Shown piece after piece: positions 4,932 to 64,000 of a stretch of 64,000 nt of DNA; position 1 is the stretch's first letter, and the number at the start of each line of letters is the position of its first letter. The DNA lies in NCBI GenBank assembly GCA_029781865.1, contig JAKOVW010000079.1, positions 466,458-530,457 on the forward strand, given 5' to 3'. This DNA is from Bacteroidota bacterium. Lineage in GTDB: Bacteria; Bacteroidota; Bacteroidia; Chitinophagales; Saprospiraceae. Position numbers and translations under genes: made by a program. The notes beneath the pieces were generated by a model, which was not told the DNA's origin, made no database searches, and was given only the letters and a program-made list of their open reading frames with translations.

Positions 4932-4939
4932 CAAAGATA
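4932..4939 (-). promoter_or_regulatory. Putative -7 element for the NadR-like kinase gene
   Basis: TATCTTTG on the minus strand matches TAnnTTTG. It lies about 35 bases upstream of the kinase start and overlaps the first base of the divergent hypothetical gene. Confidence 0.45.
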
Positions 4940-7699: not shown

Positions 7700-7701
7700 A
7701 C

Positions 7702-8247: not shown

Positions 8248-8250
8248 TTT

Positions 8251-11849: not shown

Positions 11850-11854
11850 GCAAA

Positions 11855-45673: not shown

Positions 45674-47914
45674 TCAGTTAATCACACAAACTTTTCTCAT
45701 CGTGGTCATTCCATTCCATTTCATGACGAGATAATACATTCCTTCATGATCAGGTGCATTGATATTTATTCTTTGTATTCCGGAATCTATCATTACATCA
45801 TTGCCGAAAACAGCTCTACCATAGATATCAAACCAGCGATAGTTCAATGGACCATTCTCATCACTTTCCAGTGATACAAAACTTTGACCTGTATTAGAAA
45901 TGAGATTTGGTGTAAACAGCAATAAAGACGAATTATCCTGATCCGATTTAAATCCGGCTCTTTCAAAATAAATTTTATGCGGATACTCCGGATTTGCTTG
46001 TTGATAATAATGAAGGTTTACGCAAATGGTATCTTTCAAAATACAATTTGGATCGTTGATGGTCCATTCAAAACAATAGACCCCATAATTGTGTGCCGTA
46101 ATTTTTGACCGTGGATTGTTTGGTTCATGAATAACAACAGGATATGGTCCTCTGATTAGTCTCCAGGATCCATTGGGACTTTGTTTTGCATCCAGATAGG
46201 CATCTAGTCCCCGTTTTTCAAAATCTTCACCAGCAATCTTGGTTTTCATAAATACATCAAGGCATTTTACACAACTGGTTCCACAATCCGTATTATAGGA
46301 AACACAAACCCTGCCTGTATCTGTTGGCTTTAAAGACCACTTTACCTGTATAGTTGATGTATCTGTTTTTGAAATGATATTTCCACCGTTAACTGTCCAG
46401 GAATAGAATTTGACCTGTTGAGGAATAATAGAGTCCAACCAATAATCGCTGATTGTATCAAAGCAATAAACTTTTCCACCATTTAATCTGAAAGCACATT
46501 GTGGTGCAGCGTGTCCCTCATCAAATGATTCACAAAATGTCCTTGAGCAAAATTGTATTTCATATTCCAATTGGGTTTTGACAATTACTTCAAGGCAATA
46601 CTCTTCTGAAACCGGTTTCACCATTAATCTATCATCTGTACTCAAAATATGCGTAGGATCACTTTTCTTATACCATTTGTATTCAAATTCATAGGTTTCA
46701 CCTGCATTACAAGGTTTTACAATTTGAACATTTGGTATTAGTTCGACCATTCCATTACTACATTCCATACTCCAAACGGGAGCATAATCTACTTTCACAG
46801 CGGTCAATAAAATGGAACTATCACATTTAAGGCCGTCCGTTGATTTTGAAAGCACCACGTTCGATTGAAAAAGACAAGGATTGTGTTTGTTACCCAAAAT
46901 ATCAACATAAGGCTTCCCGTCACAACTTATATAGTATACTCTTTCCGGAGATGGCTTTTCTAAAATGGTGAATTCAACTATTGAATCGAATTTACAGCAA
47001 TTAGCATCTGAAAACTGTTCCCTATATGTACCAGAATTATAAATTCGCTGCGAATGCCATTTATAACCTCCCGGATTAGCCTCCTCCCAGCATATAAATC
47101 GGGGCACTCCCGTTTTATCTAAAATACGTCTGACTTTTGCTGTAGCACATTGCGGACCCTGCTGTGAACAAATAGAACCACTTTGCGGATTGCCAATGTA
47201 AGCAGTAACACAAATTGCGAAATCGCCTTCTTCAGGCATATCCAGTTGAATTTCATTGCTGTTACCACCTACTTCATTCCCATCAAGGGTCCAAACATAA
47301 GTTGGCACGCATCCTCCTGGTTGCGGATTGACAAAAAACTTCACATTGCAAGCACCTTCACAAATCGGCTGAATGATCATACCTGGTACATTATTTATTT
47401 TACCCAAAGGCGCCAATGCAGGTGGTCCCCCTCCTGAGGTATTTAGAGTAAAATTGCAAACATCTCCATTACAACCATCCACCCATAAGTAATAGGTTTT
47501 ACAAGGCTTCAAAGTAACATTAACTGTTGACATTGAATTAGCTGGAATGCATGGTGCAGACCTGCAGACAATTTCTTCAGCGCATATACAATCGCCCCAA
47601 ATTCCATACTCAAGGCCCTGACCATTATTACAACTTCCAACTGTTAATGTGATAGTGACATTTCCGCCCGCACTCACAAATCCCCACCAACTCGTGTTAT
47701 CTCCTAGCCCTCCTTGTGAACATAAAGGAGCACATGGGCTTGGTATTGTGCTGTTATTCTGACAGGTATAGCCATTCATTTCATCCAAAGAACAGAGAAC
47801 ATTGGCTTCCTCGCAGGTCTCCGCCATAGCTGGTGTGCATTGCGCATATAGAATCTGGACCTGGGCAGATATAAAAAAAATCACCCATGCCAGCCATCGC
47901 ATTTGTTTCTTCAT
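45674..47914 (-). CDS. Secreted Cys-rich protein homologous to the N-terminal part of the giant surface proteins, type A-like T9SS tail
   Basis: The product has 746 residues. The signal peptide ends LYAQ. Residues about 25-160 are a Cys-rich module (CSLDEMNGYTCQNNSTIPSP is identical in the giant at 57320). A PKD-like domain (FFVNPQPGGCVPTYVWTLDG) and three further conserved blocks follow, matching the giant over roughly 560 residues. After residue about 565 a repeat-like segment (AGEDFEKRGLDAYL) leads to a C-terminal tail ending GMYYLVMKWNGMTTMRKVCV. That tail resembles a T9SS type A sorting domain, not the type B domain of the giants. It is the most upstream-located product of this array on the map and is convergent with the hydrolase gene. 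Confidence 0.85.
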   Translation of the reverse strand: MKKQMRWLAWVIFFISAQVQILYAQCTPAMAETCEEANVLCSLDEMNGYTCQNNSTIPSPCAPLCSQGGLGDNTSWWGFVSAGGNVTITLTVGSCNNGQGLEYGIWGDCICAEEIVCRSAPCIPANSMSTVNVTLKPCKTYYLWVDGCNGDVCNFTLNTSGGGPPALAPLGKINNVPGMIIQPICEGACNVKFFVNPQPGGCVPTYVWTLDGNEVGGNSNEIQLDMPEEGDFAICVTAYIGNPQSGSICSQQGPQCATAKVRRILDKTGVPRFICWEEANPGGYKWHSQRIYNSGTYREQFSDANCCKFDSIVEFTILEKPSPERVYYISCDGKPYVDILGNKHNPCLFQSNVVLSKSTDGLKCDSSILLTAVKVDYAPVWSMECSNGMVELIPNVQIVKPCNAGETYEFEYKWYKKSDPTHILSTDDRLMVKPVSEEYCLEVIVKTQLEYEIQFCSRTFCESFDEGHAAPQCAFRLNGGKVYCFDTISDYWLDSIIPQQVKFYSWTVNGGNIISKTDTSTIQVKWSLKPTDTGRVCVSYNTDCGTSCVKCLDVFMKTKIAGEDFEKRGLDAYLDAKQSPNGSWRLIRGPYPVVIHEPNNPRSKITAHNYGVYCFEWTINDPNCILKDTICVNLHYYQQANPEYPHKIYFERAGFKSDQDNSSLLLFTPNLISNTGQSFVSLESDENGPLNYRWFDIYGRAVFGNDVMIDSGIQRININAPDHEGMYYLVMKWNGMTTMRKVCVIN

Positions 47915-47999
47915 AGTTATAAGATCTAATAAAACCCCTTTGTGCTGCTTTAATGGTAGCTAAAATAGCCATTTTCAAATACAGAACAATTTTTCAGAA

Positions 48000-49496
48000 T
48001 TAGTTCAACACAGCTATTTTCTTTACAAATGTACTACCATTTGTCTTGAATGCGAGAATATAGAAGCCTGGCTGAACAGGTGAATAGATAGTCTGTTCAC
48101 TAACCCCAATTTCCGCAACCACATAATTGCTATAAATACTAGTACCGTTGAGATCGACCCACTGATAGTTGAAAAGCACTTCCGTGCTGGTTTTACAAAC
48201 AATAGCCGTGCTTCCTGAGCCAGTAATTAAGCCTGGTACATAGAATTCGATTGGTGTGTTATTTTCAGAATTTGAATAATTATTTCTATCTAATAATCCA
48301 TACTTTGGATAATCCGGATCTGACGTTTTTATGGTATAAAACTGAATACAAACTGTATCCCTTTCACAAGGATCTGTAATGGAAGACCATAATAAGCAGT
48401 ATCTTCCATATTTATCCACTTTGAGTTTTGAAGAAGGGTCCAAAGGGTTTTCAAAAACTACATTCCCAGGCCCGCTTATTTGCTTCCAATATCGCCTTTC
48501 ACGAAAAGTCCCATTGAGCTTTGCAGTTAATCCTAATTTTTTAAAATCTTTTCCTGCACTGGAATCTATATTTAGTCCGCAATTACAATTATAAGTATCG
48601 ACAACTAAATTAGAAAGACAACCATTTGCATCTTTAATTTCCACTTTAAAATCGATTAAACTTGGAATGGTATCTGTAACGTATTTATTACCCTTAATTA
48701 GTCCCATACCAATCTGAATATAATAGGGAGGAAGTCCATCTGAAATTGTAAGAATCGCCTGATAATTAAATGGAGGTTGAATATCAATACATATACGCTG
48801 GTCAATGGCCAGAAAAGGGAGAGGATTAAACTTAATGCTAACCTGATCAGCAGCAATACAACCATGGTTGTCTTCCATAAGCTCAAACAGATAATTGCCA
48901 TACTTGCCATTGGTACTAACACGAGTAACAACAGATTCATCTTCTGCAAAACTTACTCCCCCACCATCAATCAACCGCCATTTAATTATTGATTCACGAA
49001 CACTTTGAACTCCATTCAACTCATAGAATGATCCACAGACGGCACTATCCCCGCCGGCATATGGCTCTGGACTCTTATAACAAATAAAGGGTTTGGGCCC
49101 ATCTACCTGAACACATGGTGAATTAAAATCAATACTGCCTGCTCCATTCCTATTTCCAAGCAAAGCAAATACATAATACGTTGTATTGAAACTGAAATAG
49201 CTCAAGTCAAAATCAAATTTCATCGAAGACAAAATTTTTATAAAATTACCTTCGGCAGCAGCGTCCGGATCAGGATCCGATGTAATCACAAAGATTAAAC
49301 TGTCATTCGGATTCCGACGTTCTTGAGTATTATCATATATTAATGAAATCTGTTGCCCTTCACAAATTGACTCTAAATTGTTTTGCAGTTTTCCAACCGC
49401 ATTCCCACAAGAATCTTTACCAAAATTTCTTGCTGCGCCTAAACAAAGTACCCCGCTTAAAACCATCAACATTGCGATGAAAAAATATCTGATCAT
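48000..49496 (-). CDS. Secreted protein homologous to an internal module of the giant surface proteins, type A-like T9SS tail
   Basis: The product has 498 residues. A signal peptide (about 1-22) is followed by NAVGKLQNNLESICEGQQIS, which aligns with the first Cys-bounded module of the giants (NAVGTIDKGIENVCDDQSF), through to YNCNCG near residue 310. The segment that follows (AGKDFKKLGLTAKLNG) parallels AGEDFEKRGLDAYL of the 746-residue neighbour. Both share a tail ending in a type A-like T9SS signal (GFYILAFKTNGSTFVKKIAV). Together the two small proteins cover consecutive parts of one giant. Function: surface or extracellular structural protein, by architecture. Confidence 0.82.
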   Translation of the reverse strand: MIRYFFIAMLMVLSGVLCLGAARNFGKDSCGNAVGKLQNNLESICEGQQISLIYDNTQERRNPNDSLIFVITSDPDPDAAAEGNFIKILSSMKFDFDLSYFSFNTTYYVFALLGNRNGAGSIDFNSPCVQVDGPKPFICYKSPEPYAGGDSAVCGSFYELNGVQSVRESIIKWRLIDGGGVSFAEDESVVTRVSTNGKYGNYLFELMEDNHGCIAADQVSIKFNPLPFLAIDQRICIDIQPPFNYQAILTISDGLPPYYIQIGMGLIKGNKYVTDTIPSLIDFKVEIKDANGCLSNLVVDTYNCNCGLNIDSSAGKDFKKLGLTAKLNGTFRERRYWKQISGPGNVVFENPLDPSSKLKVDKYGRYCLLWSSITDPCERDTVCIQFYTIKTSDPDYPKYGLLDRNNYSNSENNTPIEFYVPGLITGSGSTAIVCKTSTEVLFNYQWVDLNGTSIYSNYVVAEIGVSEQTIYSPVQPGFYILAFKTNGSTFVKKIAVLN

Positions 49497-49586
49497 AAAG
49501 TATAGTGTCTAATGCAAGAGCCTTATAACTCAATTTTTGCTGCTTTGACAGCGCTCTCATTTAACACATACTTTTAAATAGCCTGA

Positions 49587-50987
49587 CTACTTTACACCAT
49601 CCTTAGGAAAGTACTTCGCCATTAATTCCGTCCACTTGGGTCCTGACCGCAATAATTCAAGATCCTGATCAAGCTGTAACATTTGAATAGTTAGTCCTTG
49701 AAGCGAATGCAAAAGACAGATACTTTGCAAATCCTTCAGTTCTTCAGCTTTTAACAACTGTCTGATTCTTTTCCTTTTTTGAATGGCTTGCTCCAGATAC
49801 TCATACGCCTCTTTTGTTTCACCATTCGATGACAACAGATAAGCCATACCAAACATGGCGGGGGTAAAATCAGGATCAATTTTTAACGATTTTAGAAACG
49901 CTGCCTTTGCTTCATTTAAATGCTTTGATTTATAATCAATCATGGCAAGAAAAGTATACGGGCTAGCCATAGCAGAATCCAATTGAATAGCCTTAAGCAA
50001 ATTTGGTTTAGCTTCAGAGTAACGATGTGTCAGCAAGTACATCCAACCCAAATGATTATAAGCCAGGGCATAATTGGCATCCAGTAAAATTGCCTGCTTA
50101 TAAGCTAATTCTGCCTCCTGATATCGTTTGACCTGAATATACAACCATCCGAGCTTATAAAATGATTGAGCATAATTCGAATCTAATGAATGGATGTTTT
50201 TATAGGCAAGCTGCTCTTCAACATACTGACCATAATACGACATAGCAAAATTAGTATCGAGCGCTATTGCTTTTTTAAACGCTAAATTTGCAGAAGCAAC
50301 GCGTTCAGTATTTGAAAGCACACTACCTAACCTATAATGTGCGAATGCATAACCGGAATCAAGCGCTATGACCCTCCTGTATAATTTTTCAGCATCTGAA
50401 TTATAATTATTGTCCAGATAAACTGCAGCAATATTGACTATCAGTCTAAGTGTAACCGGATTGCTGTTAATTAGTTTTGATACCAGTTCCGAAGCATCAT
50501 TGGTTCTTTTTTTCTTCAGATAAATATTAATCAATGAAACATTACAAAAGGCATTCTGGGGATCTATTTTTAAAGCCTTCCTGTAATGCGACTCTGCCTG
50601 AGCCCATTCCATTCTGTTCCCGTAAATTGTTGCCAGATAACTATATACCGACGCATCCGGTTTTTCAGAACGCACCGCTTTGAGGAAATATCTTTCTGCT
50701 AATTTGTCGTTTTTTCTACCATTGAATTGCAGAACACCTAGCCAATAATTGGCCTGTACATCTTCAGAATCGATTTCCAGCACTTTATTAAAATAATATT
50801 CTGCACTGTCTATTTTTTTTAAAGGATAAAAGTCAATTCCTGTTGAAATCAGAAGTTGTTTTTTAGTAGAATCTGCAGTGGATAATAATAAAGGATAACC
50901 ATTGAAAACCGGAATGGCAAACAATTCGCGATCCAATAGCTTCAATATCGTAATTGCGAAGCATAAAATTAAGGGTTTACATTTCAT
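49587..50987 (-). CDS. Exported tetratricopeptide-repeat protein
   Basis: The product has 466 residues. A signal peptide (about 1-24) is followed by about ten TPR units of 34 residues with the standard W/Y-LG--Y and A--A---P pattern. Examples are AESHYRKALKIDPQNAFCNV, AELAYKQAILLDANYALAYN and AKAAFLKSLKIDPDFTPAMF. The last 70 residues (ELKDLQSICLLHSLQGLTI) are not TPR. TPR superhelices mediate protein contacts. A periplasmic place between surface-protein genes on the same strand suggests help in their export or assembly, but there is no direct proof. Confidence 0.88.
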   Translation of the reverse strand: MKCKPLILCFAITILKLLDRELFAIPVFNGYPLLLSTADSTKKQLLISTGIDFYPLKKIDSAEYYFNKVLEIDSEDVQANYWLGVLQFNGRKNDKLAERYFLKAVRSEKPDASVYSYLATIYGNRMEWAQAESHYRKALKIDPQNAFCNVSLINIYLKKKRTNDASELVSKLINSNPVTLRLIVNIAAVYLDNNYNSDAEKLYRRVIALDSGYAFAHYRLGSVLSNTERVASANLAFKKAIALDTNFAMSYYGQYVEEQLAYKNIHSLDSNYAQSFYKLGWLYIQVKRYQEAELAYKQAILLDANYALAYNHLGWMYLLTHRYSEAKPNLLKAIQLDSAMASPYTFLAMIDYKSKHLNEAKAAFLKSLKIDPDFTPAMFGMAYLLSSNGETKEAYEYLEQAIQKRKRIRQLLKAEELKDLQSICLLHSLQGLTIQMLQLDQDLELLRSGPKWTELMAKYFPKDGVK

Positions 50988-51111
50988 ATTCTCCTGTCAG
51001 TTCAATTTTAACCAACATAAATTAATACGCTTGTATTTTGATGCAATACATTTTGAATTGAACCGATTTATGGTTATGCAATTCGATTTATAAATTTCAA
51101 CATTATTTACG

Positions 51112-54100
51112 TCATCTAACCAGGGTCAACTCTCCTTTAAATTTATCTACTCCATTTGATCCCGAATACTCAATCTCTGCATAAAATACATACACTCCCG
51201 GCAGCACTTTCTTCCCGTTAAACTCTCCATCCCAACCTGCATTAGGATCTGTATTTCCATCCTTAATATTTTGTACAGAATAGACCAACTCACCCCAACG
51301 ATTGTATATATTTAATGTTCGTATATTATTAATGCGCTTCCCTTTCAGATTCCAAAAATCGTTAATTCTGTCTCCATTTGGGGAAAATACATTTGGCCAC
51401 CACACATCTTTGATCGTCCTTACAATCACGGTAACTTTTTCCTGAACAAGGCATCCTGTAGCATCAATTACTGTTATAAGAAAATCCCGTGTGGTATCTG
51501 CCAGATAACGCACATCAGGCCAACTGATATTTTGATTCAGATTTAACCAACTCGTATCTTTATAGACAGGAGTGCCTCCGGAAATTTTTAAAATCATACT
51601 GTCCAAATTTACCGGAGAATCCAAATCGACAACAATGCTTTTGATTACTTGTATTCCAAGTTTGGAAGGCTCTTGTAACAGGACAGTAGTATCGTGTTCA
51701 CATCCATTACTATCCTTTATCTTTAAATGGTACTTACCCTGACTTAAGTTAGGGAAAAAACTACTTTTGCTAAATCCCAAATCATTTATGGAATATTGAA
51801 TACCATCCACAGGAATATTTGCAATTGCACCATTCAATCGAATTTCTCCGTTTTGATCACCAAAACACTTTGGATCTACGGCTATTAAATCAATACCTAC
51901 AATGGGATTGCTTAATTCCAATACGGAATAAGTTGTCAGACTATCGCATCCGTTGTTTTGATCTTTTACGCGGAGCTGATAGGTGCCCGGTTTATCAATA
52001 GTAATCGTTGATGAATGTATTCCGGATATAATATTTCCATTGGAGGTCTGCCATGAATAGGACTCAATCGGCCCGGATTGTCCTTTAGATGCACTACCGT
52101 CTAATTGAATTTGTCTATTCGTGCAAACCAACTGACCGATTTGCTGTATATCCGGAACAGGTTTTTGATAGTCTCCAATCACATTGATAGAAATGGAATC
52201 ACTACATCCATTCTTTTGATTTGCAATAATCAAATTATAAACCCCGGTGGCATTAACCGTTGGCGTATACGTATTTCCATTCACTATACTTCCGGGACCT
52301 TTCCATTGTACAATAAATTCAGCTCCCTGTGAAGATGTCGAACCATCCAGCATAACACTGGTACGATTACAATTTAGTTCCAGAGGCTGAGCAATTGCAA
52401 CAACCGGATTATCCACACGGATTCCAATATCATAGGTAGTCTGACTTGTGCATTTTGAAACAGGATCCGTGACCAATAATTTATACGTTCCGGGTGCTTT
52501 TATTGTTACCGCTTTAGTGGTGTTGCTCCCGGCAATGATTCCATTGACAGAAGTCCAATTATAAGTTAAAGGAGAGCCAGAACCGCTGACCGATGTGCTT
52601 CCATCAAGAACAATTGAAGTTTCAATACATGTCAGAGTATCATCGCCTGTTATTTTTGCAAGCGGATAATCATACCATGTAACCGCAACAACTTCGAATT
52701 TTAAACAACGGTCACTGAACAATATTCTTGTAGGATCATTCGGATCAGGGTTTCCCATCAATACAGCTATATAATAAGTTTTGCCGGATTGCATAAACGA
52801 CTTATCGAAAGAAAAACTGCCGCTGTTATTATAACTGATTTGATTGCCGGATCCGGGATCTGCAGGATTACCTTCATAAAGTAAATATCGTATGACATCA
52901 TTGGCATCGGGATTACCGGAGTTCACACTATAATTCGCCCTGGCTACGTCATCCAAACAGAGTATCATTGGCGTTTTATCCAAATTGCCGATTGAATTTA
53001 TACATGGACATTCATAAGTACCACTAATCGTATCCGGCAAACAATTATGCCTGTCATGAATAATAAGTCTGTAATTGTCATTATTAGCTATCCAATCCGT
53101 TTGCCAGGTATTTGCACTGCTAAACATTCCCGAAAGAACACCCCGGGCAGGAGTATATCCATCAATGACCCAGGAAGGTCGATCCCCATTCTGTCCATCC
53201 ACTTTTATTCTGTAATATTCTGCCGTATTATCGCATTCGGGAGGAATTGCATTGATAAAAACGGGAGCATCCCAATGTGTAATTAAAACCGTATCATACG
53301 AAATACATCCTTTGTAATTCTCAGCAAGTTGATACATATACGTTCCGGTAGCTGCAACACTTACATTTGTGATTGCGCTATTCGGATTGGCAATCGTACT
53401 TTGACCGGGACCTGAGATTAGCTTCCATGATGCGCTGCCTGATTTGGCGATTCCTTTCAACTGGTAATCGAAAAAACAAACACTGTCACCAGCACCTGCT
53501 ACAGGCACAGGATAGGCATTCCATACAATTGCCTGGTTATTGGAAGCCCGCAGACAAGGATCCGTATTATCTACGATTGCGTTCTTGGGCATAGAATCAT
53601 TTCCGACCACCCGGGTGATGTAGTACGTTTTACCTGGGATCATTCCTTTGGAAGGATTGAAACAAATTTTCGCAGATGAAGAATAAAAAGTATCAATCGG
53701 CAAAATGATTTTGTCATTATAAGAAGATTGATGGAGTACATACATTGCGACATCTTCCTGCGCAAGTGTTTCCGGCACTATGCTTCGGATTGACACGCAT
53801 TGATCAACACAAACCTCAACAAGTGCGGTATCCAGTTTCCCTGCATCAATAATACCACAGTTGCAATTGTAACCATCAAGAATCAAATTCGAGATACATC
53901 CATTAGCATCTTTTATTTTTACATTAAACTGAGCCAGACTCGGCAAAGTGTCTGTTGAGTAAATATTTCCATTGATTGTTCCGTTACCCAAAACAATGCT
54001 AAACGGAGGTTTGCCATTTGTTATTAAAATATTGGCTTTATAAGGAAATGGGGGAAGATAATCCAGACAAATTTTTTCATCAACGGCAATAAATGGTGAA

Positions 54101-56577
54101 GGATTGAATGAAATTGTTACGCGATCCGCTGCAATACAACCTTTATTATTTTCTGACAATTCAAATATGAAAGTTCCGTATTGTCCATTCGAATTTAAAG
54201 TCGTAGAAGCCATAGTATCATCAGCAATAGTTATACCGGAGCCAGAAATTAAATTCCATTTTATCTTTGATCCCTTAATACCGGCTAATCCATTCAATGA
54301 CAGACTCGTTCCGCAAATAGCATTATCCGGTCCTGCATTTGGAACAGGATTCTGATAAAATTGAAATGGCTTCGGGCCATCTGACTGAACACAACCTGCC
54401 TGATAATCTATTCCTGCTTTACCATTCTTCTTCCCGATGAGCACAATGATATAATAACTGGTATTGTATGACATATATCCCGGATCAAAAATCACTGTTG
54501 CTGAATTCAGCATTTTAATAAAATTTCCTTTAGCTGCGAGATCAGGATCCGGATTTGTTGTAATTACATAAATAATCGTATCTCCCGGATTTAATTTTTG
54601 CAATGCAGGATCATAATTACAAGTAAAACTTTGATCTTCACACATCTCTTCAATAGTCCTGTCTATCCGACCAATTGCATTAGGACATTTACAATCATGA
54701 TCAAAATCAAAGCTCAACTCACACCCCATTGCATCGCGAACAAGAATAGAATAATTAGTTACATTATCATATAAATTGGAATTATAAACATTATTTGCAT
54801 CTATGGTTCCATTCCCCTTTATAATTTTATAAGGCGGAGTCCCTCCATTAATTTTAAACTGTAAATTGTATTGCGTTTGTTTTGAATTACACAAAAAGTT
54901 CAATCCTGATGAATCCGGTTTTGAATTAAAAAACAGATCAACAGTATCCGAACCGGAACATCCTAAATAGGTTTCTTTATAAGCAAAGCGATACATTCCA
55001 AATTTATCAACCGAAACTTTAGACTTTGGATCGTTATTGTCTGAAATCGTAGCATTACCACCTGAGGGACCGGATAAAATTGTCCATGAACCACCTACAT
55101 CTTTCTTTCCCTGAAACTGATTTACAAGATCGCAAATACTATCATTTGGTCCTGCATCCGGAGCAGGTGATGCTTTCATAGCAACTCTAAGGCATTTCTC
55201 ACAGGACCTGCCACAATCAGTATCGTAAAACACGCAAACTGTTCCAGTGTCACCCGGAAGTAAATTCCATTTAACTTTAACACCCGGAGAATCAATTTTA
55301 GAAATCACTGTGCCACCATCAATAGTCCAGGTATGAAATAATACTTTTTGACTGATTACAGTATCGATCCAATAAGATCCTGTCTGACCAGCACATATTA
55401 CGAGATCACCGGCCATTGGAAAACATTTAGGTGCATAATCGGACTCTTTAATTGGTTCACAAAAAGTTCTGGTACATACTTCAGATTCTGTAGATAGATC
55501 AACCCTGATACTCACTTCAACACAATAATCCTTGGAAACGGACTCCACCAACAGACGTTCATCTGTCGAAATAGTAGTACGTAGCGGATCATTCTTGAGA
55601 TACCATTTATAATTAAACTGATATGATTCACCAACGCTGCAGGGTTTGAGCACAGAAATATTGGGTGAAATTTCAATCATTCCACCTATACATTGTGCTT
55701 TCCACCGAGGTGTCACATCGATATTTATTGCAGTTAAAATTATGGAGCTGTCGCATTTCCAGGGATCGGTGGTTTTTGTCAAAGGGACAAGGACGTGATC
55801 CAGACATGGTTTATGAGAATGTTTTAATATATCCACATAAGGGGTATTATCACAAGTGATATAATATACTTCCGCAGGAACGGGATCCGGTGGTATTGAA
55901 AAGTCCACTATTGAATCAAAGGGACAGCAATTGTTGGGGAATCGTTGTACATATCTGCCCGGTGTAGAAATAATCTGACCATTCCAAACAGCGCCGGCAC
56001 AAACTGTTCTCGGTTTACCAATTCTTTGCTGAACAATAAAATTATCCAGAGTAACATTAATGGTAAAATCACAAATATCATTTTCCACACTTGTCATCCA
56101 CAGGTAATATTTTTTACAAGGTTCCAGAGTCCCTTTATATGTCCATGTTTTATTTTTTTGATCGGGGTGCTGTTTCGGACCACAACAATAAACTTCTTTT
56201 CCACAGGTGCAATCTGCCCAAATTCCCCACATCAATCCATCCTGATCTCCATCTCCATCCGCATCGATGCAGGTTCCGGTTGACAACGTAATTGTTACAT
56301 CACCGCCCGGTGCAATGAAAGCCCACCAGGTCTGGGCGTTTCCATTCCATGCTAAAGTAGAACACCAGGGATTGCATAGTTTGCCACCTCCACCGAGATT
56401 GTTACAAGAAAATCCATCCAAATCGATTAAACAAGTTGCAGGTGAAGAACCGCAGTCACTTGAACCCGGACAAGGACCCTGTGCTTTTAAATTAATGCCA
56501 TATGACAATGACATCGCGACTATCCCTAAAATCAGTTTGGACCGGGTAGCCGGAATAAAGTTGATTTTGTTTTTCAT
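51112..56577 (-). CDS. Giant modular surface protein with SprB-like repeat and T9SS type B C-terminal domain (copy 1)
   Basis: The product has 1821 residues from the start at 56577 (MKNKINFIPATRSKLI), which gives a good signal peptide; the 16-residue longer start is less likely. Order: a Cys-rich N-terminal module (CLIDLDGFSCNNLGGGGKLC), conserved blocks shared with the other giant, and three diverged Cys-bounded modules each opening with CxC and GxLD or GRID. PKD-like repeats follow (LDGSTSVSGSGSPLTYNW), then an SprB-type repeat (DPKCFGDQNGEIRLNG). The type B sorting domain has FSPNGDRINDFW, IYNRWGELVYS and LPGVYVFYAEIEY. Compared with the 57320 copy it lacks one PKD-like domain of about 100 residues after the Cys-rich module. 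Likely an adhesin or surface-layer protein. Confidence 0.9.
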   Translation of the reverse strand: MKNKINFIPATRSKLILGIVAMSLSYGINLKAQGPCPGSSDCGSSPATCLIDLDGFSCNNLGGGGKLCNPWCSTLAWNGNAQTWWAFIAPGGDVTITLSTGTCIDADGDGDQDGLMWGIWADCTCGKEVYCCGPKQHPDQKNKTWTYKGTLEPCKKYYLWMTSVENDICDFTINVTLDNFIVQQRIGKPRTVCAGAVWNGQIISTPGRYVQRFPNNCCPFDSIVDFSIPPDPVPAEVYYITCDNTPYVDILKHSHKPCLDHVLVPLTKTTDPWKCDSSIILTAINIDVTPRWKAQCIGGMIEISPNISVLKPCSVGESYQFNYKWYLKNDPLRTTISTDERLLVESVSKDYCVEVSIRVDLSTESEVCTRTFCEPIKESDYAPKCFPMAGDLVICAGQTGSYWIDTVISQKVLFHTWTIDGGTVISKIDSPGVKVKWNLLPGDTGTVCVFYDTDCGRSCEKCLRVAMKASPAPDAGPNDSICDLVNQFQGKKDVGGSWTILSGPSGGNATISDNNDPKSKVSVDKFGMYRFAYKETYLGCSGSDTVDLFFNSKPDSSGLNFLCNSKQTQYNLQFKINGGTPPYKIIKGNGTIDANNVYNSNLYDNVTNYSILVRDAMGCELSFDFDHDCKCPNAIGRIDRTIEEMCEDQSFTCNYDPALQKLNPGDTIIYVITTNPDPDLAAKGNFIKMLNSATVIFDPGYMSYNTSYYIIVLIGKKNGKAGIDYQAGCVQSDGPKPFQFYQNPVPNAGPDNAICGTSLSLNGLAGIKGSKIKWNLISGSGITIADDTMASTTLNSNGQYGTFIFELSENNKGCIAADRVTISFNPSPFIAVDEKICLDYLPPFPYKANILITNGKPPFSIVLGNGTINGNIYSTDTLPSLAQFNVKIKDANGCISNLILDGYNCNCGIIDAGKLDTALVEVCVDQCVSIRSIVPETLAQEDVAMYVLHQSSYNDKIILPIDTFYSSSAKICFNPSKGMIPGKTYYITRVVGNDSMPKNAIVDNTDPCLRASNNQAIVWNAYPVPVAGAGDSVCFFDYQLKGIAKSGSASWKLISGPGQSTIANPNSAITNVSVAATGTYMYQLAENYKGCISYDTVLITHWDAPVFINAIPPECDNTAEYYRIKVDGQNGDRPSWVIDGYTPARGVLSGMFSSANTWQTDWIANNDNYRLIIHDRHNCLPDTISGTYECPCINSIGNLDKTPMILCLDDVARANYSVNSGNPDANDVIRYLLYEGNPADPGSGNQISYNNSGSFSFDKSFMQSGKTYYIAVLMGNPDPNDPTRILFSDRCLKFEVVAVTWYDYPLAKITGDDTLTCIETSIVLDGSTSVSGSGSPLTYNWTSVNGIIAGSNTTKAVTIKAPGTYKLLVTDPVSKCTSQTTYDIGIRVDNPVVAIAQPLELNCNRTSVMLDGSTSSQGAEFIVQWKGPGSIVNGNTYTPTVNATGVYNLIIANQKNGCSDSISINVIGDYQKPVPDIQQIGQLVCTNRQIQLDGSASKGQSGPIESYSWQTSNGNIISGIHSSTITIDKPGTYQLRVKDQNNGCDSLTTYSVLELSNPIVGIDLIAVDPKCFGDQNGEIRLNGAIANIPVDGIQYSINDLGFSKSSFFPNLSQGKYHLKIKDSNGCEHDTTVLLQEPSKLGIQVIKSIVVDLDSPVNLDSMILKISGGTPVYKDTSWLNLNQNISWPDVRYLADTTRDFLITVIDATGCLVQEKVTVIVRTIKDVWWPNVFSPNGDRINDFWNLKGKRINNIRTLNIYNRWGELVYSVQNIKDGNTDPNAGWDGEFNGKKVLPGVYVFYAEIEYSGSNGVDKFKGELTLVR

Positions 56578-57319
56578 TTCAATAATTATGAATATTGATA
56601 ACAATGCAGGCTTTATCATCAACACAATTTCAATTCTTCAGTCCTGATCTAATTTAACTACATACACTTTTGTTAAATGGCTGACGAAACATAAGCACTC
56701 ATCCTTCCTGCTTTCCGGCAACAAACTTCATTACAAAGACTGTTTGACTTTATGTTTACCAAGAGTAAGTCATAGTTTCTTTTTAAGAACAAACACAATT
56801 GAGCAAAATTATTTTGTTCATTCGTTTTGCCATTTGAAATAACTAAAAATAATGGAAATTTTATCGGCTTGAAAAGCACCCGCAAGAACAACCGTTTTTG
56901 TGATTTCATAAGTCAGCCTTTTTAAATATATAAGCTTTTACTCTTGATTTTGAAAATTTAAACGGAGTTTGAGAGAAGGAAAATTAAAGCAATTTTCAAG
57001 GTGCCTCTACATAGAATTACTTCATTCAGATCTAAAAATACGAAAATATCCTAATTGTCAAACTTTTTTCAGGCCTTTACCCAATATTATCTTACGTATT
57101 TGCAACACCAAGAGATGTTCCATTCCAATTTCGGGCCAAATTATTCCCTGCTCATGTTTAAGACCATAATTTCGGATATTGGACTCGTTCATTTTGCGCT
57201 GATTGCTCTTTTCTTGAAACACCCTATTTCCTATATTGATCCAAACTCAAATTGCAATTGTTACTTTTAATTTTAGATGATTTAATAATTTATCGTCAAC
57301 CATTTGCCATGGAATACCT
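56578..57319. other. 742-base intergenic region between the two giant genes
   Basis: This stretch is AT-rich and separates the upstream stop from the downstream start. Short frames exist (56673-56909 minus, 57055-57270 plus) but none shows a family, a signal peptide or good start context. No clear hairpin terminator or strong promoter was recognised. It presumably holds the 3' end of the 57320 transcript and the promoter and leader of the 51112 gene. Confidence 0.6.
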
Positions 57320-60300
57320 CTACCTTATCAAAGTAAACTCTCCTTTATATTTATCAAATCCTGTTGATCCAACATATTCTATTTCCGCATAAAACACATA
57401 CACGCCCGGAAGTGCTTTCTCTCCTTTCAACTTTCCATTCCATCCTGCAGTCGCATCTGCGTTTCCATCTTTTATGTTCTGTGCTGAATACACCAATTCA
57501 CCCCAACGATCATAGATGTTCAATGTTCTTATATTACTGATTCGCTTTCCTTTGAAATTCCACACATCATTTATGTTGTCACCGTTCGGAGAAAATGCGC
57601 TTGGCCACCATGAATCTTTTATGATTCTGACTATCACCTTTATCCTGTCCTCTATCTGGCATCCTGATGCGTCTGTTACCGTGATCAAAAAGTCACGTGT
57701 GGTATCTGCATGATACTGCAATTGAGGTTCCCAGTCTATATTCTGATTCAGGTTTAACCAAGCCGTATCCTTGTAATTCCTTGTGCCACCTGTTATATTC
57801 AACAACATGTTTCTCAAATCAATCAATGAATCCTGATCTACCACTATTGACTTTATCACCTGTATACCCAGCTTAGATGGTTCTATCAATGTAACTATGG
57901 TATCGTGTTCACATCCATTTACATCTTTTACTTTCACACTGTAAGTCCCCTGACTCAGATTATTAAAACTCGAGGCCGGTCCAAAATTTCCGTTGTTGAA
58001 TGAATACTGCAATCCATTCAGCGGACCTGAGGGTATGATTCCGTTTATATCTATCATCCCGTTGCGATCTCCAAAACATTTCGGATCCTGCGCATTCAGA
58101 TTAAATCCTGCCAGTGGGTTTCCAATTTCCACTACGTCCAATGTCGTTATACTATCGCAGCCATTATTCTGATCTTTTACACGCACCTGATATGTTCCTG
58201 CTTTGTCTATAGTTACCTTCGATGTGCCTAATCCGGCCACAATATTTCCGTTTTGTGTTTGCCAGCTATACGTACTGATCGGACCTGACTGTCCTTTTGA
58301 TCCGCTTGCATCCAACTGCATCTGTTTTACTGAACAGGTCAATTGTCCTATTGGAGTAATATCCGGTGTTGGTTTTCTCAAATCACTTCTTACATTCACT
58401 GCTACTGAATCTTCACAACCATTATTCTTATTCATCACGATGATATGATACACCCCAATCGCATCCACCATTGGTTGGTATGTATTGCCATTCAATATAT
58501 TTCCTGGACCTGTCCACCTTACCTGGTATTCATTTCCCTGTGATGATGACGTTCCATCCAGAAGTACACTGGTCCGATCACAGGTCAACTCCTGTGGCGA
58601 AGCAATACTCACAGCCGGTTTTGTTACATCAATTCCGATGTTGTAGGTTATTTCATTGGTGCATTTCGAGATTGGATCTGTTACAAATAATTTATATGTA
58701 CCCGGTGCATTGATTGTCGCTGTGTTGTTGGTTGTACTTCCGACGATATTTCCATTCATTGTACTCCATGCATACGTCAATGGTGTACCTGATCCACTTG
58801 TCGATGCATTTCCATCCAATGCAATTGTCGTAATTGCACAGGTCAGCGTTTTATCCACGCTGTTTATTTTCGCAACCGGATAATCATACCAGGTTACCGG
58901 AACCACATCGAATTTTAAACACCGGTCGCTGAGTAATACTTTATTCGCATCATTCGGATCCACATTTCCCATGAACACTGCTATGTAATATGTTTTTCCA
59001 GTCTGCATTTTTGACATATCAAATACAAAACTTCCATTCGAATTAAAGCTCAACAGGTTTCCATTCCTCGGATCTGCAGGATTTCCATCAAACAGTGCGT
59101 AACGAATTACATCATTTCCATCCGGTGTTCCTGTATTTACAGCATAATTCGCTTGTGCCGTGCCGTCTTTACACAACAGGATTGGTTTTTTATCCAATGC
59201 TCCTATGCTTGATATGCATGGACACTCAAATGTGTTGCTGATCGTATCCGGCATACAATTATGGCGATCATTAATAATCAATCGATATACATCATTATTG
59301 GCTATCCAATCTGTCCGCCATGTATTCGCTCCTGTAAACATGCCTGACAGTGCTCCTCCGGGTATGGTATTTCCATCGATTGTCCATGACGGCCGGTCTC
59401 CGTTTTGTCCGTCTACACTGATCCGGTAATATTCTGCTGTATTATCACATTCCGGTGCTGCCGGAACTCCAAAATCAGGTGCATCCCAATACGTGATATC
59501 CACTGTGTCTCTCGATATGCAGCCTTTGAAATCTTCTGACAATTCATACTTGTAGGTGCCTTTGCCAAATACAAATACCTGCGTTACATCTTTGTTCGCA
59601 TTCGATATCACACTTGTTCCAGGACCTGATATCAACTTCCACGACGGCACTCCTGTATTGGTTATTCCATTCAACTGATAGTTGTAAAAACATACGCTGT
59701 CCTGTGGGCCTGCATCCGGACTTGGATAATCATACCATACGATAGGTTGGTTTTTGGACACCCGCTTACACGGATCTAACGGATCTACGATTCCGTTAAA
59801 ATCTTTATCATCTCCTACTACACGCGTTACATAATAGGTCTTTCCCGTTACCATCGTCGCAGCATTAAAACAAATCTGATCATTCACTGAATAAAAGGTA
59901 TCCAGTTTCGGAAAGGCCGGATCCGTTTCATTCCACGAGGACTGATGCAATACATACATCACTACATCTTCCGGATCCCTTATTTCTGAAATCAAACTTT
60001 TTATACTTACACATTTGTCTTTACACACTTCTGTTATCGTGGTATCCAATTGCCCCGCATCGATATTGCCGCAATTGCAATTGTAGTCATCGATGATCAG
60101 ATTCGATACACAACCGTTTGCATCCTGTATCTCCACCTGGAACTGTGCCAAGCTCGGAAGTGTATCTGTCGTGTATATATTTCCACTAATGCTGCCACCT
60201 CCCTGCAGTATAGTAAATGGCGCTACCCCATTTGTTATTTTAATTGTTGCTTTATATGGATACGGTGGCAAATATTCGATACATATTTTTTCATCCACTG

Positions 60301-63064
60301 CTATAAACGGCAACGGGTTAAACGTAATTTCTACACGGTCCGCCACAGCGCAATTCTGATTGTCTTCTGTCAACTCGAATATGTATTTCCCGAATTGCCC
60401 GTTTGTATTCACCGTTGTTGCAGCCTGTGCGTCATCTGTTATGCTCACTCCATTGCCACTTACCACTCTCCATTTCAAAGCAGAACCAGTTACACTTGAT
60501 ATCCCTTTCAGATCATACGTGGTGCCGCATATTTTATCATCCTGACCTGCATCAGGAGATGGTTTTTTGTAAAAGATAAATGCCTTGGGGCCATCAAACT
60601 GTACACAACCTGACAGAAAATCGATTCCTCCTTTGCCATCCTTCTTGCCTACCAACACTACGATATAATACGTCGTATTATATGCCATATAACCCGGATC
60701 AAAAATGATTGTTTTTGAACTCAACACTTTGATATAAGTGCCGGGGCCACCTCCTGCTGCATTCGCTGGATCAGGATCTGTGGTTACTACATAAATTACC
60801 GTATCGTTGGGATCTAATTTTTCGTTCGTTGCATCATATACAAATGTAAAACTCTGATCATCACATACATTTTCGATTCCTTTATCTATTGTTCCAACTG
60901 CATTGGTACACTTACATTCGTGACTAAAATTAAAATTCAATACACAACCCATTACATCCCGGATCAGTATGGTATAATTCGTCAGGTTATCATATAAATT
61001 CGAATTGTAATAATTATTTGCATCGATGCTTCCATTACCCTGAACTACCGTATAAGGAGGTGTGCCTCCGCTTACCAGAAACCGCAATTTATATTGTGTT
61101 TGTTTTACATTGCAGATATACGTTAGTCCGGTTGAATCCGGTGTTGAATTGAAATACAGATCCACTGTATCTGACCCGGCGCATCCGGTACGCAATTCAT
61201 TGTACACATAACGGTAGATTCCAAACTTATCCACCACCACATTGGATTGCGGATCAGTCGGATCTGTGATACTTGAATTGCCGGGACCTGATAACTGTGT
61301 CCACTGGCCTCCTGCATCTTTTTTACCCTGGAATTTATTCGCCAAACTGCATATACTGTCATTGGGTCCGGCATACGGCGCCGGAGCCGGCCTGATGGCT
61401 ACGCGTATACACTTCTCACAGGATCTTCCGCAATCCGTATCATAAAACACACATACCGTTCCCGTATCTCCCGCCGGTAAGTTCCACTTCACTTCTACTC
61501 CTTGTGAATCCGGTTTGCTCACTACACTTCCACCGTCTATCGTCCAGGTATAAAAACTAACTTTTTGCGAAATGAATGTATCTATAAAATACGATCCGTT
61601 TTTTCCTATGCACAACACCTGATCTCCTGCAAGTGGGAAACACTTCGGTGCCAGATCTCCTTCATTGAATGTTTCACAAAATACTTTCGTGCATGTTGAA
61701 TTCACATTCACCAAATCAACTTTTACTTTTACTTCAAGGCAATAATCTTCATTTACTGCATCAACCATTAATCGTTCGTCCGTACCTATGGTCTTTTTGC
61801 CTGGATCATTTTTCTTATACCATCTGTAATCAAACTGATACGTTTCTCCAACATCACAGGGTTTTAATATGCTGACATTTGGTGAGATCTCCACCATCCC
61901 TGCTATACATTGCACTTTCCATCTCGGTGAAAAATCAACATTCACTGCAGTCAGCATAATCGAACTGTCACATTTAAACGGTGACGTCGTTCCCGGTAGC
62001 AATACTTCAAAATGATCTTTGCAGGGTGTATACGAATGTCCTAGAATATCTACATAGGGCATATTATCACAAGTGATATAATAAACATCAGGTGGATCAG
62101 GAACCGGTAATACAACAAAATCAACTACCGAATCATACTTGCAGCAATTCACATCCGTAAACTGTTCGCGATAGGTGCCGGAACTCGTGATATATTGTGA
62201 ATGCCATTTATAACCTGGTGCCATAGTAAGTTCATTACATAGCGTACGCTTCACACCCTTTTTATCTGCAATAGGTCTGACTTTTACTGTTGCACATTTA
62301 GGTCCTTCCTGTGAGCAGATCGATCCGCTTTGCGGATTACCAATATAGGCTGTCACACAAATGACAAAATCACCCTCATCCGGAAAATCCAATTTAATCT
62401 CATTCCCACTTCCACCTACTTCATTTCCATCTAATGTCCAGACATACGTCGGCTCACAATTTCCCGGTTGAGGATTGACAAAAAACTTGACATTGCATGC
62501 ACCAGCACATACAGGTTGAATGATTCCACTGGATATATTATTTATAAAACCCAAAGGGGATAAAGTTGGAGGACCACCCCCGGCTGTATTTAATGTAAAA
62601 TCGCAGACATCTCCACTACATCCATCTACCCATAAGTAATAGGTTTTGCAGGCTTTCAGGTTAGCTGATGCAACGGTGACTGAATTCGGTGGAAGACAAG
62701 GTATCGACCTGCAAATTAGATCTTCACCACATACACAATCTCCCCATACACCATATTGCAAACCCATACCGGTCGTACATCCTCCAATAGTCAATGTAAT
62801 AGTTACATTTCCTCCCTGACATACAAATCCCCACCAACTGGTATTTTGTCCATCACCTCCCATAGAACACAAAGGCATACATGGGCTTGGAATGGTGCTA
62901 TTGTTCTGACAGGTATAACCATTCATTTCATCCAGAGAACATAGTACCTGAGCTTCATCACAGGTCTCCGCCATCGGCGGAGTACATTGAGCTAAAACTG
63001 ATTCTATCCGGATAGAAGATAATATCACGATTAGCATCGAAACACTAATTCGCGAAAGTTGCAT
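57320..63064 (-). CDS. Giant modular surface protein with SprB-like repeat and T9SS type B C-terminal domain (copy 2)
   Basis: The product has 1914 residues from the start at 63064 (MQLSRISVSMLIVILSSIRI), where the signal peptide ends near VLAQC; a start 21 residues earlier is less likely. Order with rough positions: Cys-rich module 27-165; PKD-like domain 170-265; conserved blocks 270-550; repeat 560-640. Three Cys-bounded modules open near 716 (CKCTNAVG), 995 (CNCGNIDAG) and 1281 (CPCISSIG). PKD-like repeats span 1403-1660 and an SprB-type repeat 1665-1750 (DPKCFGDRNGMIDING). The type B domain is at about 1830-1914 (FSPNGDNINDVW, IYDRWGELVYS). Export by T9SS and surface anchoring are inferred. 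Its 3' third is nearly identical to the next gene. Confidence 0.92.
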   Translation of the reverse strand: MQLSRISVSMLIVILSSIRIESVLAQCTPPMAETCDEAQVLCSLDEMNGYTCQNNSTIPSPCMPLCSMGGDGQNTSWWGFVCQGGNVTITLTIGGCTTGMGLQYGVWGDCVCGEDLICRSIPCLPPNSVTVASANLKACKTYYLWVDGCSGDVCDFTLNTAGGGPPTLSPLGFINNISSGIIQPVCAGACNVKFFVNPQPGNCEPTYVWTLDGNEVGGSGNEIKLDFPDEGDFVICVTAYIGNPQSGSICSQEGPKCATVKVRPIADKKGVKRTLCNELTMAPGYKWHSQYITSSGTYREQFTDVNCCKYDSVVDFVVLPVPDPPDVYYITCDNMPYVDILGHSYTPCKDHFEVLLPGTTSPFKCDSSIMLTAVNVDFSPRWKVQCIAGMVEISPNVSILKPCDVGETYQFDYRWYKKNDPGKKTIGTDERLMVDAVNEDYCLEVKVKVDLVNVNSTCTKVFCETFNEGDLAPKCFPLAGDQVLCIGKNGSYFIDTFISQKVSFYTWTIDGGSVVSKPDSQGVEVKWNLPAGDTGTVCVFYDTDCGRSCEKCIRVAIRPAPAPYAGPNDSICSLANKFQGKKDAGGQWTQLSGPGNSSITDPTDPQSNVVVDKFGIYRYVYNELRTGCAGSDTVDLYFNSTPDSTGLTYICNVKQTQYKLRFLVSGGTPPYTVVQGNGSIDANNYYNSNLYDNLTNYTILIRDVMGCVLNFNFSHECKCTNAVGTIDKGIENVCDDQSFTFVYDATNEKLDPNDTVIYVVTTDPDPANAAGGGPGTYIKVLSSKTIIFDPGYMAYNTTYYIVVLVGKKDGKGGIDFLSGCVQFDGPKAFIFYKKPSPDAGQDDKICGTTYDLKGISSVTGSALKWRVVSGNGVSITDDAQAATTVNTNGQFGKYIFELTEDNQNCAVADRVEITFNPLPFIAVDEKICIEYLPPYPYKATIKITNGVAPFTILQGGGSISGNIYTTDTLPSLAQFQVEIQDANGCVSNLIIDDYNCNCGNIDAGQLDTTITEVCKDKCVSIKSLISEIRDPEDVVMYVLHQSSWNETDPAFPKLDTFYSVNDQICFNAATMVTGKTYYVTRVVGDDKDFNGIVDPLDPCKRVSKNQPIVWYDYPSPDAGPQDSVCFYNYQLNGITNTGVPSWKLISGPGTSVISNANKDVTQVFVFGKGTYKYELSEDFKGCISRDTVDITYWDAPDFGVPAAPECDNTAEYYRISVDGQNGDRPSWTIDGNTIPGGALSGMFTGANTWRTDWIANNDVYRLIINDRHNCMPDTISNTFECPCISSIGALDKKPILLCKDGTAQANYAVNTGTPDGNDVIRYALFDGNPADPRNGNLLSFNSNGSFVFDMSKMQTGKTYYIAVFMGNVDPNDANKVLLSDRCLKFDVVPVTWYDYPVAKINSVDKTLTCAITTIALDGNASTSGSGTPLTYAWSTMNGNIVGSTTNNTATINAPGTYKLFVTDPISKCTNEITYNIGIDVTKPAVSIASPQELTCDRTSVLLDGTSSSQGNEYQVRWTGPGNILNGNTYQPMVDAIGVYHIIVMNKNNGCEDSVAVNVRSDLRKPTPDITPIGQLTCSVKQMQLDASGSKGQSGPISTYSWQTQNGNIVAGLGTSKVTIDKAGTYQVRVKDQNNGCDSITTLDVVEIGNPLAGFNLNAQDPKCFGDRNGMIDINGIIPSGPLNGLQYSFNNGNFGPASSFNNLSQGTYSVKVKDVNGCEHDTIVTLIEPSKLGIQVIKSIVVDQDSLIDLRNMLLNITGGTRNYKDTAWLNLNQNIDWEPQLQYHADTTRDFLITVTDASGCQIEDRIKVIVRIIKDSWWPSAFSPNGDNINDVWNFKGKRISNIRTLNIYDRWGELVYSAQNIKDGNADATAGWNGKLKGEKALPGVYVFYAEIEYVGSTGFDKYKGEFTLIR

Positions 63065-63298: not shown

Positions 63299-64000
63299 CT
63301 ACCTTATCAAAGTAAACTCTCCTTTGTATTTATCAAATCCCGTTGATCCTACATATTCTATTTCCGCATAAAACACATACACACCCGGTAGTGCTTTCTC
63401 TCCTTTTAACTTTCCATTCCATCCTGCGGTCGCATCTGCGTTTCCATCTTTTATGTTCTGTGCTGAATACACCAACTCTCCCCAACGATCATAGATATTC
63501 AATGTTCTTATATTACTGATTCGCTTTCCTTTGAAATTCCACACATCATTTATGTTGTCACCGTTCGGAGAAAATGCGCTTGGCCACCATGAATCTTTTA
63601 TGATTCTTACGATCACTTTTATCCTGTCTTCTATCTGGCATCCTGCTGCGTCTGTTACGGTGATCAAAAAGTCACGTGTGGTATCTGCATGATACTGCAA
63701 TTGAGGTTCCCAGTCTATATTCTGATTCAGGTTTAACCAAGCCGTATCCTTGTAATTCCTTGTGCCTCCTGTGATATTCAACAACATGTTTCTCAAATCA
63801 ATCAATGAATCCTGATCTACCACTATTGACTTTATCACCTCTATACCCAGCTTAGATGGTTCTATCAATGTAACTATGGTATCGTGTTCACATCCGTTTA
63901 CATCTTTCACTTTCACATTGTAAGTCCCCTGACTCAGATTATTAAAACTCGAGGCCGGTCCAAAATTTCCGTTGTTGAATGAATACTGCAATCCATTCAG
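63299..64000 (-). CDS. Third giant surface protein, C-terminal part (runs off the window)
   Basis: The open frame reaches the window edge; the 233 codons seen are the C-terminal end. They cover the SprB-type repeat and the complete type B sorting domain and differ from the last part of the 57320 protein at only three residues (S/N, Q/E, S/A). About 22 DNA differences in 700 bases were counted by eye, so most are silent. The apparent TTG start at 63991 is an artefact of the window edge. It lies 234 bases upstream of the preferred start of the copy at 57320 on the same strand. Its N-terminal part is not visible, so it may be a full tandem duplicate or a chimera. Confidence 0.9.
   Translation of the reverse strand: MNGLQYSFNNGNFGPASSFNNLSQGTYNVKVKDVNGCEHDTIVTLIEPSKLGIEVIKSIVVDQDSLIDLRNMLLNITGGTRNYKDTAWLNLNQNIDWEPQLQYHADTTRDFLITVTDAAGCQIEDRIKVIVRIIKDSWWPSAFSPNGDNINDVWNFKGKRISNIRTLNIYDRWGELVYSAQNIKDGNADATAGWNGKLKGEKALPGVYVFYAEIEYVGSTGFDKYKGEFTLIR
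63300..64000 (-). repeat. Long direct repeat shared with 57321-58021 (about 97% identical)
   Basis: The two segments align without gaps over the roughly 700 bases visible, with about 22 substitutions by eye. Similarity begins essentially at the stop codon and continues to the window edge; the sequence past the stop is unrelated. It may extend further beyond the window. Confidence 0.9.

What the first reader, a model, noticed from the sequence alone, without database searches (positions are those of the whole stretch)
45674..63064. Two small secreted proteins are consecutive pieces of a neighbouring giant
The 746-residue protein (45674-47914) aligns with roughly the first 560 residues of the giant at 57320. 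The 498-residue protein (48000-49496) aligns with the next module of the same giant (about residues 716-1000). Both small proteins have their own signal peptide and share a tail segment (AGxDF-KxGL) and a type A-like end. The giant thus looks as if it were split into two secreted products, or two small genes were fused. I know of no described case of this split/fused arrangement in one array.
Basis: partly seen in the sequence, partly recalled or inferred. Interest (0 to 1): 0.78.

Follow-up and report, generated by a model that had tools for sequence, protein, structure and literature searches.

The report
Giant-protein modules re-issued on short tails
In a bacterium that likely belongs to the Saprospiraceae family, two small proteins predicted to be exported each carry one different module of a neighbouring giant protein on a shared kind of tail; family trees place those modules inside the giants' own lineage but give the two tails separate histories, so the giant was not simply split in two, and the new tail would likely send the modules to a different anchor on the cell surface.

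Summary
P0001 (746 aa) matches the giant's N-terminal module A, and P0002 (498 aa) matches specifically its first B module (52-55%, against 27-29% for other repeats). Both end in a PKD domain plus a type A-like T9SS end that the giants lack.

The split/fusion reading does not hold as stated. Gene order is reversed (the B1 gene lies upstream of the A gene). The two tails are not sisters (p-AU 0.00024). P0001 belongs to a widespread short family, and its module A does not group with its local giants (p-AU 8.5e-5). Rooted module trees place both small proteins inside the giants' clade (giants-as-one-clade rejected: B1 p 0.0017; A p 0.0057 even without the one odd short), so information ran from giant to small, not by fusion. 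P0002 is a rare second line: two relatives found in the protein database.

Best reading: a standing tail cassette (PKD + type A sorting domain) carries modules from slow-evolving type B giants, predicted to move them from PorP/SprF to PorV/PorU handling. The evolutionary part is well supported; localisation and adhesion are inferred. New variant of a known kind; moderate interest.

The parts
46259..47851 (-). P0001 module A (residues 22-552): N-terminal collagen-binding/PPC-like head plus Ig/PKD-like domains
45677..46258 (-). P0001 tail cassette (residues 553-746): PKD domain plus type A-like C-terminal domain
48564..49412 (-). P0002 module B1 (residues 29-311), counterpart of the giant's first B module
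   Evidence: 52-55% to B1 of three own-genome giants, 27-29% to other repeats; rooted tree
48003..48563 (-). P0002 tail cassette (residues 312-498): PKD domain plus type A-like C-terminal domain
   Evidence: clade with P0007/P0008 tails 99/94; TIGR04183 16.9 bits, below cut-off; 2 of 187 residues differ from P0007 against 25 of 283 in the module
61403..63001 (-). module A of giant G1 (P0005, residues 43-575)
60056..60934 (-). module B1 of giant G1 (P0005, residues 732-1024)
57323..57604 (-). T9SS type B C-terminal domain of giant G1 (residues 1842-1935)
   Evidence: TIGR04131 48.3 bits, cut-off 35
51112..56625 (-). giant G3 (P0004, 1837 aa): partial module A, B1, PKD domains, type B C-terminal domain
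   Evidence: TIGR04131 54.5 bits; 64-65% to P0005 over P0005 residues 286/296-1935
63299..64000 (-). C-terminal 233 residues of a further giant (G4), cut by the contig end
   Evidence: 99% aa and 96.9% nt to G1; contig C79 ends at the window end
49587..50987 (-). TPR-repeat protein (P0003) lying between giant G3 and P0002; probably same transcription unit (spacing only)
   Evidence: TPR families; gaps of 90 and 124 bases

Best explanation
Each of the two small proteins joins one module from the giants' lineage to a PKD plus type A-like tail that the giants lack, and the two tails have different ancestries, so the pair most likely arose by separate giant-to-short transfers rather than by a split or a fusion. 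Shown: A in P0001 and B1 in P0002 nest inside the giants' clade, while the tails follow the short class (the class split itself has moderate support). Inferred: recombination at module borders, or gene conversion of an existing short, copies giant modules onto a standing tail cassette. Inferred: the giant (type B domain) would be handled by a PorP/SprF-like shuttle and the shorts (type A-like) by PorV and the PorU sortase, so the same modules would be shown in a second, differently anchored form: P0001 as a short adhesin with the giant's head, P0002 as a headless stalk segment.
For: Modules nested in giants: B1 rooted, giants-one-clade p-AU 0.0017; A rooted, p 8.8e-21, p 0.0057 in a set without g3_S_C18 and without three long outgroup rows. 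Tails by class: 19 short tail-PKDs on one side and 14 giant PKDs on the other, support 91/77. In the own genome and 8 of its genus the tail profile scores above 75 bits in 13 frames, all of 502-802 aa, and at most 69.5 in giants (10 of the 13 were model rows). Tails of P0001 and P0002 not sisters, p 0.00024. Head lineage of the G003 short goes with giants g2A/g1A (98/95 with g2A), and all-shorts-one-clade is rejected, p 2.2e-33. Sharp junction at P0001 residue 550. P0002 is a real gene: P0007 (92%, other contig) and P0008 (48%) share its layout. Own genome has a PorU hit of 1181 bits and 9 PorP-family hits, 8 over cut-off. Type A and B shuttle and anchoring rules: PMC12618676 (abstract, introduction) and PMC9143113 (abstract, passages).
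Against: P0001 and P0002 themselves score under the type A cut-off. The class split of the tail PKD is not starred (91/77), and grouping the G003 short's tail with giants is not rejected (p 0.123). Two shorts (G004:C34, G003:C71) score 61-63 bits with the tail profile, inside the giants' range. Within the own-genome clade one origin of the A-shorts tested is not rejected (p 0.304), so 'repeated' rests mainly on the G003 short and on P0002. The time and donor of P0002's B1 are unresolved. No expression, secretion or binding data. P0002's structure model is poor (pLDDT 51).
Confidence: 0.72

Rival explanations
1. A giant of this array was split in one event into P0001 and P0002.
For: Each small protein matches a consecutive module of one giant and they are adjacent.
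Against: Gene order reversed relative to the giant. Tails not sisters (p 0.00024). The database search gave 107 proteins for P0001, the window's own copy P0009 among them, but 2 for P0002. P0001 + own giants clade rejected.
Confidence: 0.04
2. The giant arose by fusion of older small proteins.
For: Stand-alone module A proteins are widespread: 98 of 150 genomes drawn from the family (own genome included) have some P0001 match, in frames of many lengths.
Against: Giants with A followed by B1 occur in the 7 genus genomes of 97% completeness or more (G001-G007; not found in G008, 66% complete) and outside the genus (G049:C38). Genus shorts tested nest inside genus giants. This does not exclude an older fusion before these giants.
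Confidence: 0.07
3. The shorts are an old separate class whose modules were later overwritten by gene conversion from local giants; no module was ever newly captured.
For: Tails follow class and heads follow genome lineage. Giants in the array look converted by each other: G4 against G1 runs 94%, then 74-83%, then 91-98% nt along 939 bases.
Against: Cannot easily explain P0002, whose module B1 has no counterpart in A-shorts; conversion needs homology.
Confidence: 0.2
4. Assembly or gene-call artefact.
For: Contigs break inside near-identical giants at the window end.
Against: P0002 recurs at 92% on another contig of 550,826 bases. Both genes lie inside a 530 kb contig with open frames throughout.
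Confidence: 0.02

Closest known systems
T9SS type B adhesins (SprB of Flavobacterium johnsoniae; TIGR04131 proteins with PorP/SprF-like shuttles)
   Same: The giants carry a type B C-terminal domain above cut-off and hold several PKD-type domains; PorP-family genes exist in the genome.
   Different: None of the 9 PorP-family hits lies in the window; the nearest on this contig is about 228 kb from giant G2 and about 290 kb from the window's giants. The giants donate single modules to shorts of the other tag class, which I saw described in none of the passages or sections of the four papers I opened.
T9SS type A sorting-domain proteins (TIGR04183 / PF18962)
   Same: Short tails lie in this family by relatives and by the predicted Ig-like fold of P0001 matching, among others, the PorU C-terminal domain.
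   Different: P0001 and P0002 score under the curated cut-off; their bodies are giant modules, not enzymes.
GhpA grappling hook of Aureispira (same family as the window's organism: recalled)
   Same: A chain of Ig/PKD-like domains; top Foldseek hit of P0001 (E 1.8e-16, TM 0.15). A review passage calls the hooks T9SS-secreted (PMC11205867, passage).
   Different: No sequence match to any PDB chain at E<=0.1 for P0005. The large rmsd (20-45 A) means only a similar string of domains.
Domain shuffling in bacterial fibrillar adhesins (PMC10952558, title and start of abstract seen in the listing)
   Same: Adhesins built by swapping modules.
   Different: Here the swap also changes the secretion and anchoring tag class, and donor type and recipients sit in one array.

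Membership tests
T9SS type A CTD protein (TIGR04183/PF18962) | Curated score cut-off reached by P0001 and P0002 | tested here: not met
   13.3 and 16.9 bits against 23
T9SS type A CTD protein (TIGR04183/PF18962) | Family members with the same tail reach the cut-off | tested here: met
   P0010 23.1 bits; G003 short 37.8; 35 of 50 aligned members match at E<=0.1. Against: P0007 16.0, P0008 19.1, P0011 17.6; of two other own-genome shorts S_C75 had no hit and S_C56 12.6 bits
T9SS type A CTD protein (TIGR04183/PF18962) | C-terminal Ig-like beta-sandwich | tested here: met
T9SS type A CTD protein (TIGR04183/PF18962) | PorV-dependent secretion, PorU processing | not testable with these tools
   PorU present in the genome; PorV not searched; no experiment possible
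T9SS type B CTD giant (TIGR04131) | Curated cut-off reached by the giants | tested here: met
   48.3 and 54.5 bits against 35
T9SS type B CTD giant (TIGR04131) | Linked porP/sprF-like gene (common, not universal) | tested here: not met
   None of 9 PorP-family hits lies in the window
Split gene (fission of one giant) | Pieces in the same order and of one origin | tested here: not met
   Order reversed; tails not sisters, p 0.00024
GhpA grappling hook | Sequence relationship | tested here: inconclusive
   No PDB sequence match at E<=0.1 for P0005 and no GhpA among the 2 matches of profile A1; fold similarity only

The most novel reading that the evidence does not exclude
Saprospiraceae keep a tail cassette (PKD + type A sorting domain) that captures single modules from type B giant adhesins, so one binding module is shown in two forms: on a giant handled by a PorP/SprF-like shuttle, and on a short PorV/PorU-handled protein. 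P0001 (head) and P0002 (stalk) are two captures from one giant type kept side by side.
Probability: 0.45. Interest if true: 0.66.

Novelty: new variant of a known kind. Interest (0 to 1): 0.5.

Why it matters
If right, it shows a route by which a bacterium changes where and how an adhesin module is displayed without changing the module: swap the C-terminal tag class. It gives natural matched pairs (same module, type A or type B tag) for testing whether the T9SS tag alone decides anchoring, a question that recent shuttle papers raise (PMC12618676 abstract; PMC9143113 abstract). It would also explain arrays of mixed giant and short T9SS proteins in uncultured Saprospiraceae that otherwise look like broken genes.

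Tried and rejected
Rejected: single split, fusion, assembly artefact (see rivals). Tried with little gain: a tail-only search of the protein database found only P0007 (the method needs shared 5-letter words, so a miss says little; the same limit holds for the 2 hits). The P0002 structure model was poor and was not searched. The genome-contig scan with P0005 gave one locus. The SprA family could not be checked. Literature: I saw no paper on this split or re-tailing in the listings of searches, which are partial (1 of 1, 15 of 27, 10 of 14, 2 of 2, 10 of 166, 3 of 3 papers shown; titles and abstract starts only) and cover open-licence PMC alone. The P0001 N-half looked closer to giants than to some shorts, and I first read this as gene conversion; with P0010, P0011, P0012 and P0015 added, the whole module groups with shorts (100/99), so slower evolution suffices and I dropped that claim.

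Search for other stand-alone B1 proteins: among the listed matches of 148 and 398 genomes, matches that begin before residue 40 of the query and run past 300 lie, besides P0002 itself, only in frames of 1,184 aa or more. Partial matches occur in smaller frames (for example 752, 763 and 889 aa), some at contig ends, and were not followed. One search scored at most 3 candidates per genome and at most 10, and one search's list was cut, so rarer cases may be missed.

Rows left out: one search used 4 of the database shorts (P0010, P0011, P0012, P0015) and 6 genome or window shorts; S_C20, g4_S_C10a/b, g4_S_C34, g5_S, g7_S and other divergent shorts were not in it (the first six were). further dropped g3_S_C18 and three outgroup rows (L108, L113, L117). 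One search's tail tree used 35 chosen database and window proteins plus 7 genome shorts. Alignment A1 used P0001 and 49 of the 107 proteins. One search used 7 outgroup modules, at most one per locus, out of the tblastn matches found.

Full report
WHAT IS THERE. The window is the end of contig C79 of a 4.52 Mb genome in 93 contigs. A genome that the tool places in the same genus holds a contig of 34,230 bases (G003:C69), the same length as a public record titled Saprospiraceae bacterium S-RSF-IL-02; this names the family by inference. On the minus strand, in transcription order, lie: the cut end of a giant (63299-64000), giant G1 = P0005 (57320-63127), giant G3 = P0004 (51112-56625), a TPR protein P0003, P0002 (48000-49496) and P0001 (45674-47914). 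Both complete giants end in a T9SS type B domain above cut-off.

THE OBSERVATION. P0001 matches the giant's module A (58%, E 4e-258). P0002 matches the giant's first B module B1 at 52-55% in three own-genome giants, and the other repeats only at 27-29%, so the likeness is module-specific. Both end in a PKD domain with a Cys-free AGxDF..GL start and a type A-like end. The 14 giant PKD domains compared start AGPNDSIC or similar, with a Cys.

P0001 IS NOT A FRAGMENT. Own genome: three further full shorts (750, 758, 781 aa) share head and tail with P0001. Genus: 8 of 8 genomes have P0001 matches; 7 of them in giants of 1,916-1,944 aa as well as in shorter frames, G008 (66% complete) in shorter frames and one of 1,373 aa. 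Database: 107 proteins, the window's own copy among them, many of 740-760 aa over the full length. 98 of 150 genomes drawn from the family have some match.

P0002 IS A RARE SECOND LINE. Only P0007 (92%) and P0008 (48%) were found. Both have the same B1 + tail layout. Between P0002 and P0007 the module differs at 25 of 283 residues, the tail at 2 of 187 (Fisher p 0.00018): the two parts are under different constraint or have different recent histories.

TREES. B1, rooted with seven modules from other genera: P0002, P0007 and P0008 lie inside the clade of giants from G000, G004, G005 and G007 (100/99); making the genus giants one clade is rejected, p 0.0017. Within that clade the order is unresolved: P0002 with own giants is neither shown nor rejected (p 0.263), nor is one clade of the B1 of P0002, P0007 and P0008 (p 0.424). 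Module A, rooted: a seven-row clade of P0001-type shorts (100/99) inside a 14-row clade with five giants (100/100); giants-one-clade rejected (8.8e-21), all-shorts-one-clade (10 shorts) rejected (2.2e-33), P0001 with own giants rejected (8.5e-5). The G003 short (g3_S_C18) groups with the G002 giant (98/95), then G001's (100/99), so shorts have at least two head origins. Without it and three long outgroup rows, giants-one-clade is still rejected (p 0.0057), while one origin of the remaining 9 shorts is not (p 0.304). End branches are short in the own-clade giants (0.02-0.16) and longer in the shorts (0.23-0.80). Tails: P0001 and P0002 as sisters rejected (p 0.00024); P0002 with P0007/P0008 99/94, P0001 in a 22-row clade 100/100. 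Tail PKD against giant PKD: 19 shorts on one side, 14 giants on the other, 91/77, not starred; the G003 short's tail with giants is not rejected (p 0.123). Heads thus track giant lineages while tails track class. A tail profile over nine genomes (own and 8 of the genus) scores above 75 bits in 13 frames of 502-802 aa; the best giant scores 69.5; two shorts score 61-63, inside the giants' range; 10 of the 13 were rows of the model.

THE ANCESTRAL GIANT. Giant G2 (C79:452607-458375) sits between a cmk/queA-like pair and a 1,791-aa protein whose end resembles the giants'. The G004 giant lies by the same pair (gene names by recall from the sequences). In 6 of the 7 other genomes with a giant, one giant has a neighbour of 1,797-1,850 aa that matches P0005's C-terminal part; in G004 that stretch is masked. 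So G1, G3 and G4 in the window are likely extra copies.

MECHANISM. Literature seen: type A domains are all recognised by PorV and two type B substrates tested rely on cognate PorP/SprF-like shuttles (PMC12618676, abstract and introduction); type A proteins are linked to A-LPS after PorU removes the signal, while type B proteins appear to be held by PorP-like proteins (PMC9143113, abstract and passages). The own genome has PorU and 9 PorP-family hits; SprA could not be checked. Hence the inference: moving a module from a giant to a short changes its predicted shuttle and anchor. P0001 keeps the head; P0002 has only stalk.

LIMITS. Type A membership of P0001 and P0002 themselves is below cut-off. 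No expression or localisation data. The number of captures in the own clade is unresolved. The neighbourhood of P0007/P0008 could not be fetched with the tools and caps left.

VERDICT. A confirmed and specific observation; split and fusion rejected; a real, testable pattern of module transfer between tag classes. Interest 0.5.

Noticed in passing
63299-64000 and C75:1-1067 (L042): A fourth giant is probably cut in two by the assembly: its C-terminus ends contig C79 and its N-terminus starts contig C75. Against G1 the N-terminal part runs 94%, then 74-83%, then 91-98% nt, which looks like gene conversion between neighbouring giants.
   Followed up: partly
48000-49496 against P0007: P0002 and its 92% relative differ at 25 of 283 residues in the module and 11 of 28 in the signal segment, but only 2 of 187 in the tail.
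   Followed up: partly
database proteins, for example P0062, P0069, P0098, P0110: The P0001 head also occurs with other C-terminal ends: type B domains (PF13585, several of 907-1306 aa) and PF24595 proteins of 754-789 aa.
   Followed up: no
L152:5557-10163 (G004) and L043:7333-9675 (own C20): Two tandem A-shorts in G004 lie near the same conserved 'GCTSC' gene as the single own-genome short S_C20, so this short may have a conserved place.
   Followed up: partly
L156:4738-6978 (G003): A short whose head is nearest to giants of G002 and G001 (72-77% to the G002 giant) but which carries a clear type A end (37.8 bits): a second head origin.
   Followed up: yes
44450-45583: Beta-lactamase-fold protein (PF00144) beside an RND efflux pump and outer membrane efflux protein (39985-44344), next to the array on the other strand; ordinary by family.
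   Followed up: no
9138-11849: Another protein with a T9SS type B end (903 aa, PF13585) lies in a plus-strand gene cluster 4939-12451.
   Followed up: no
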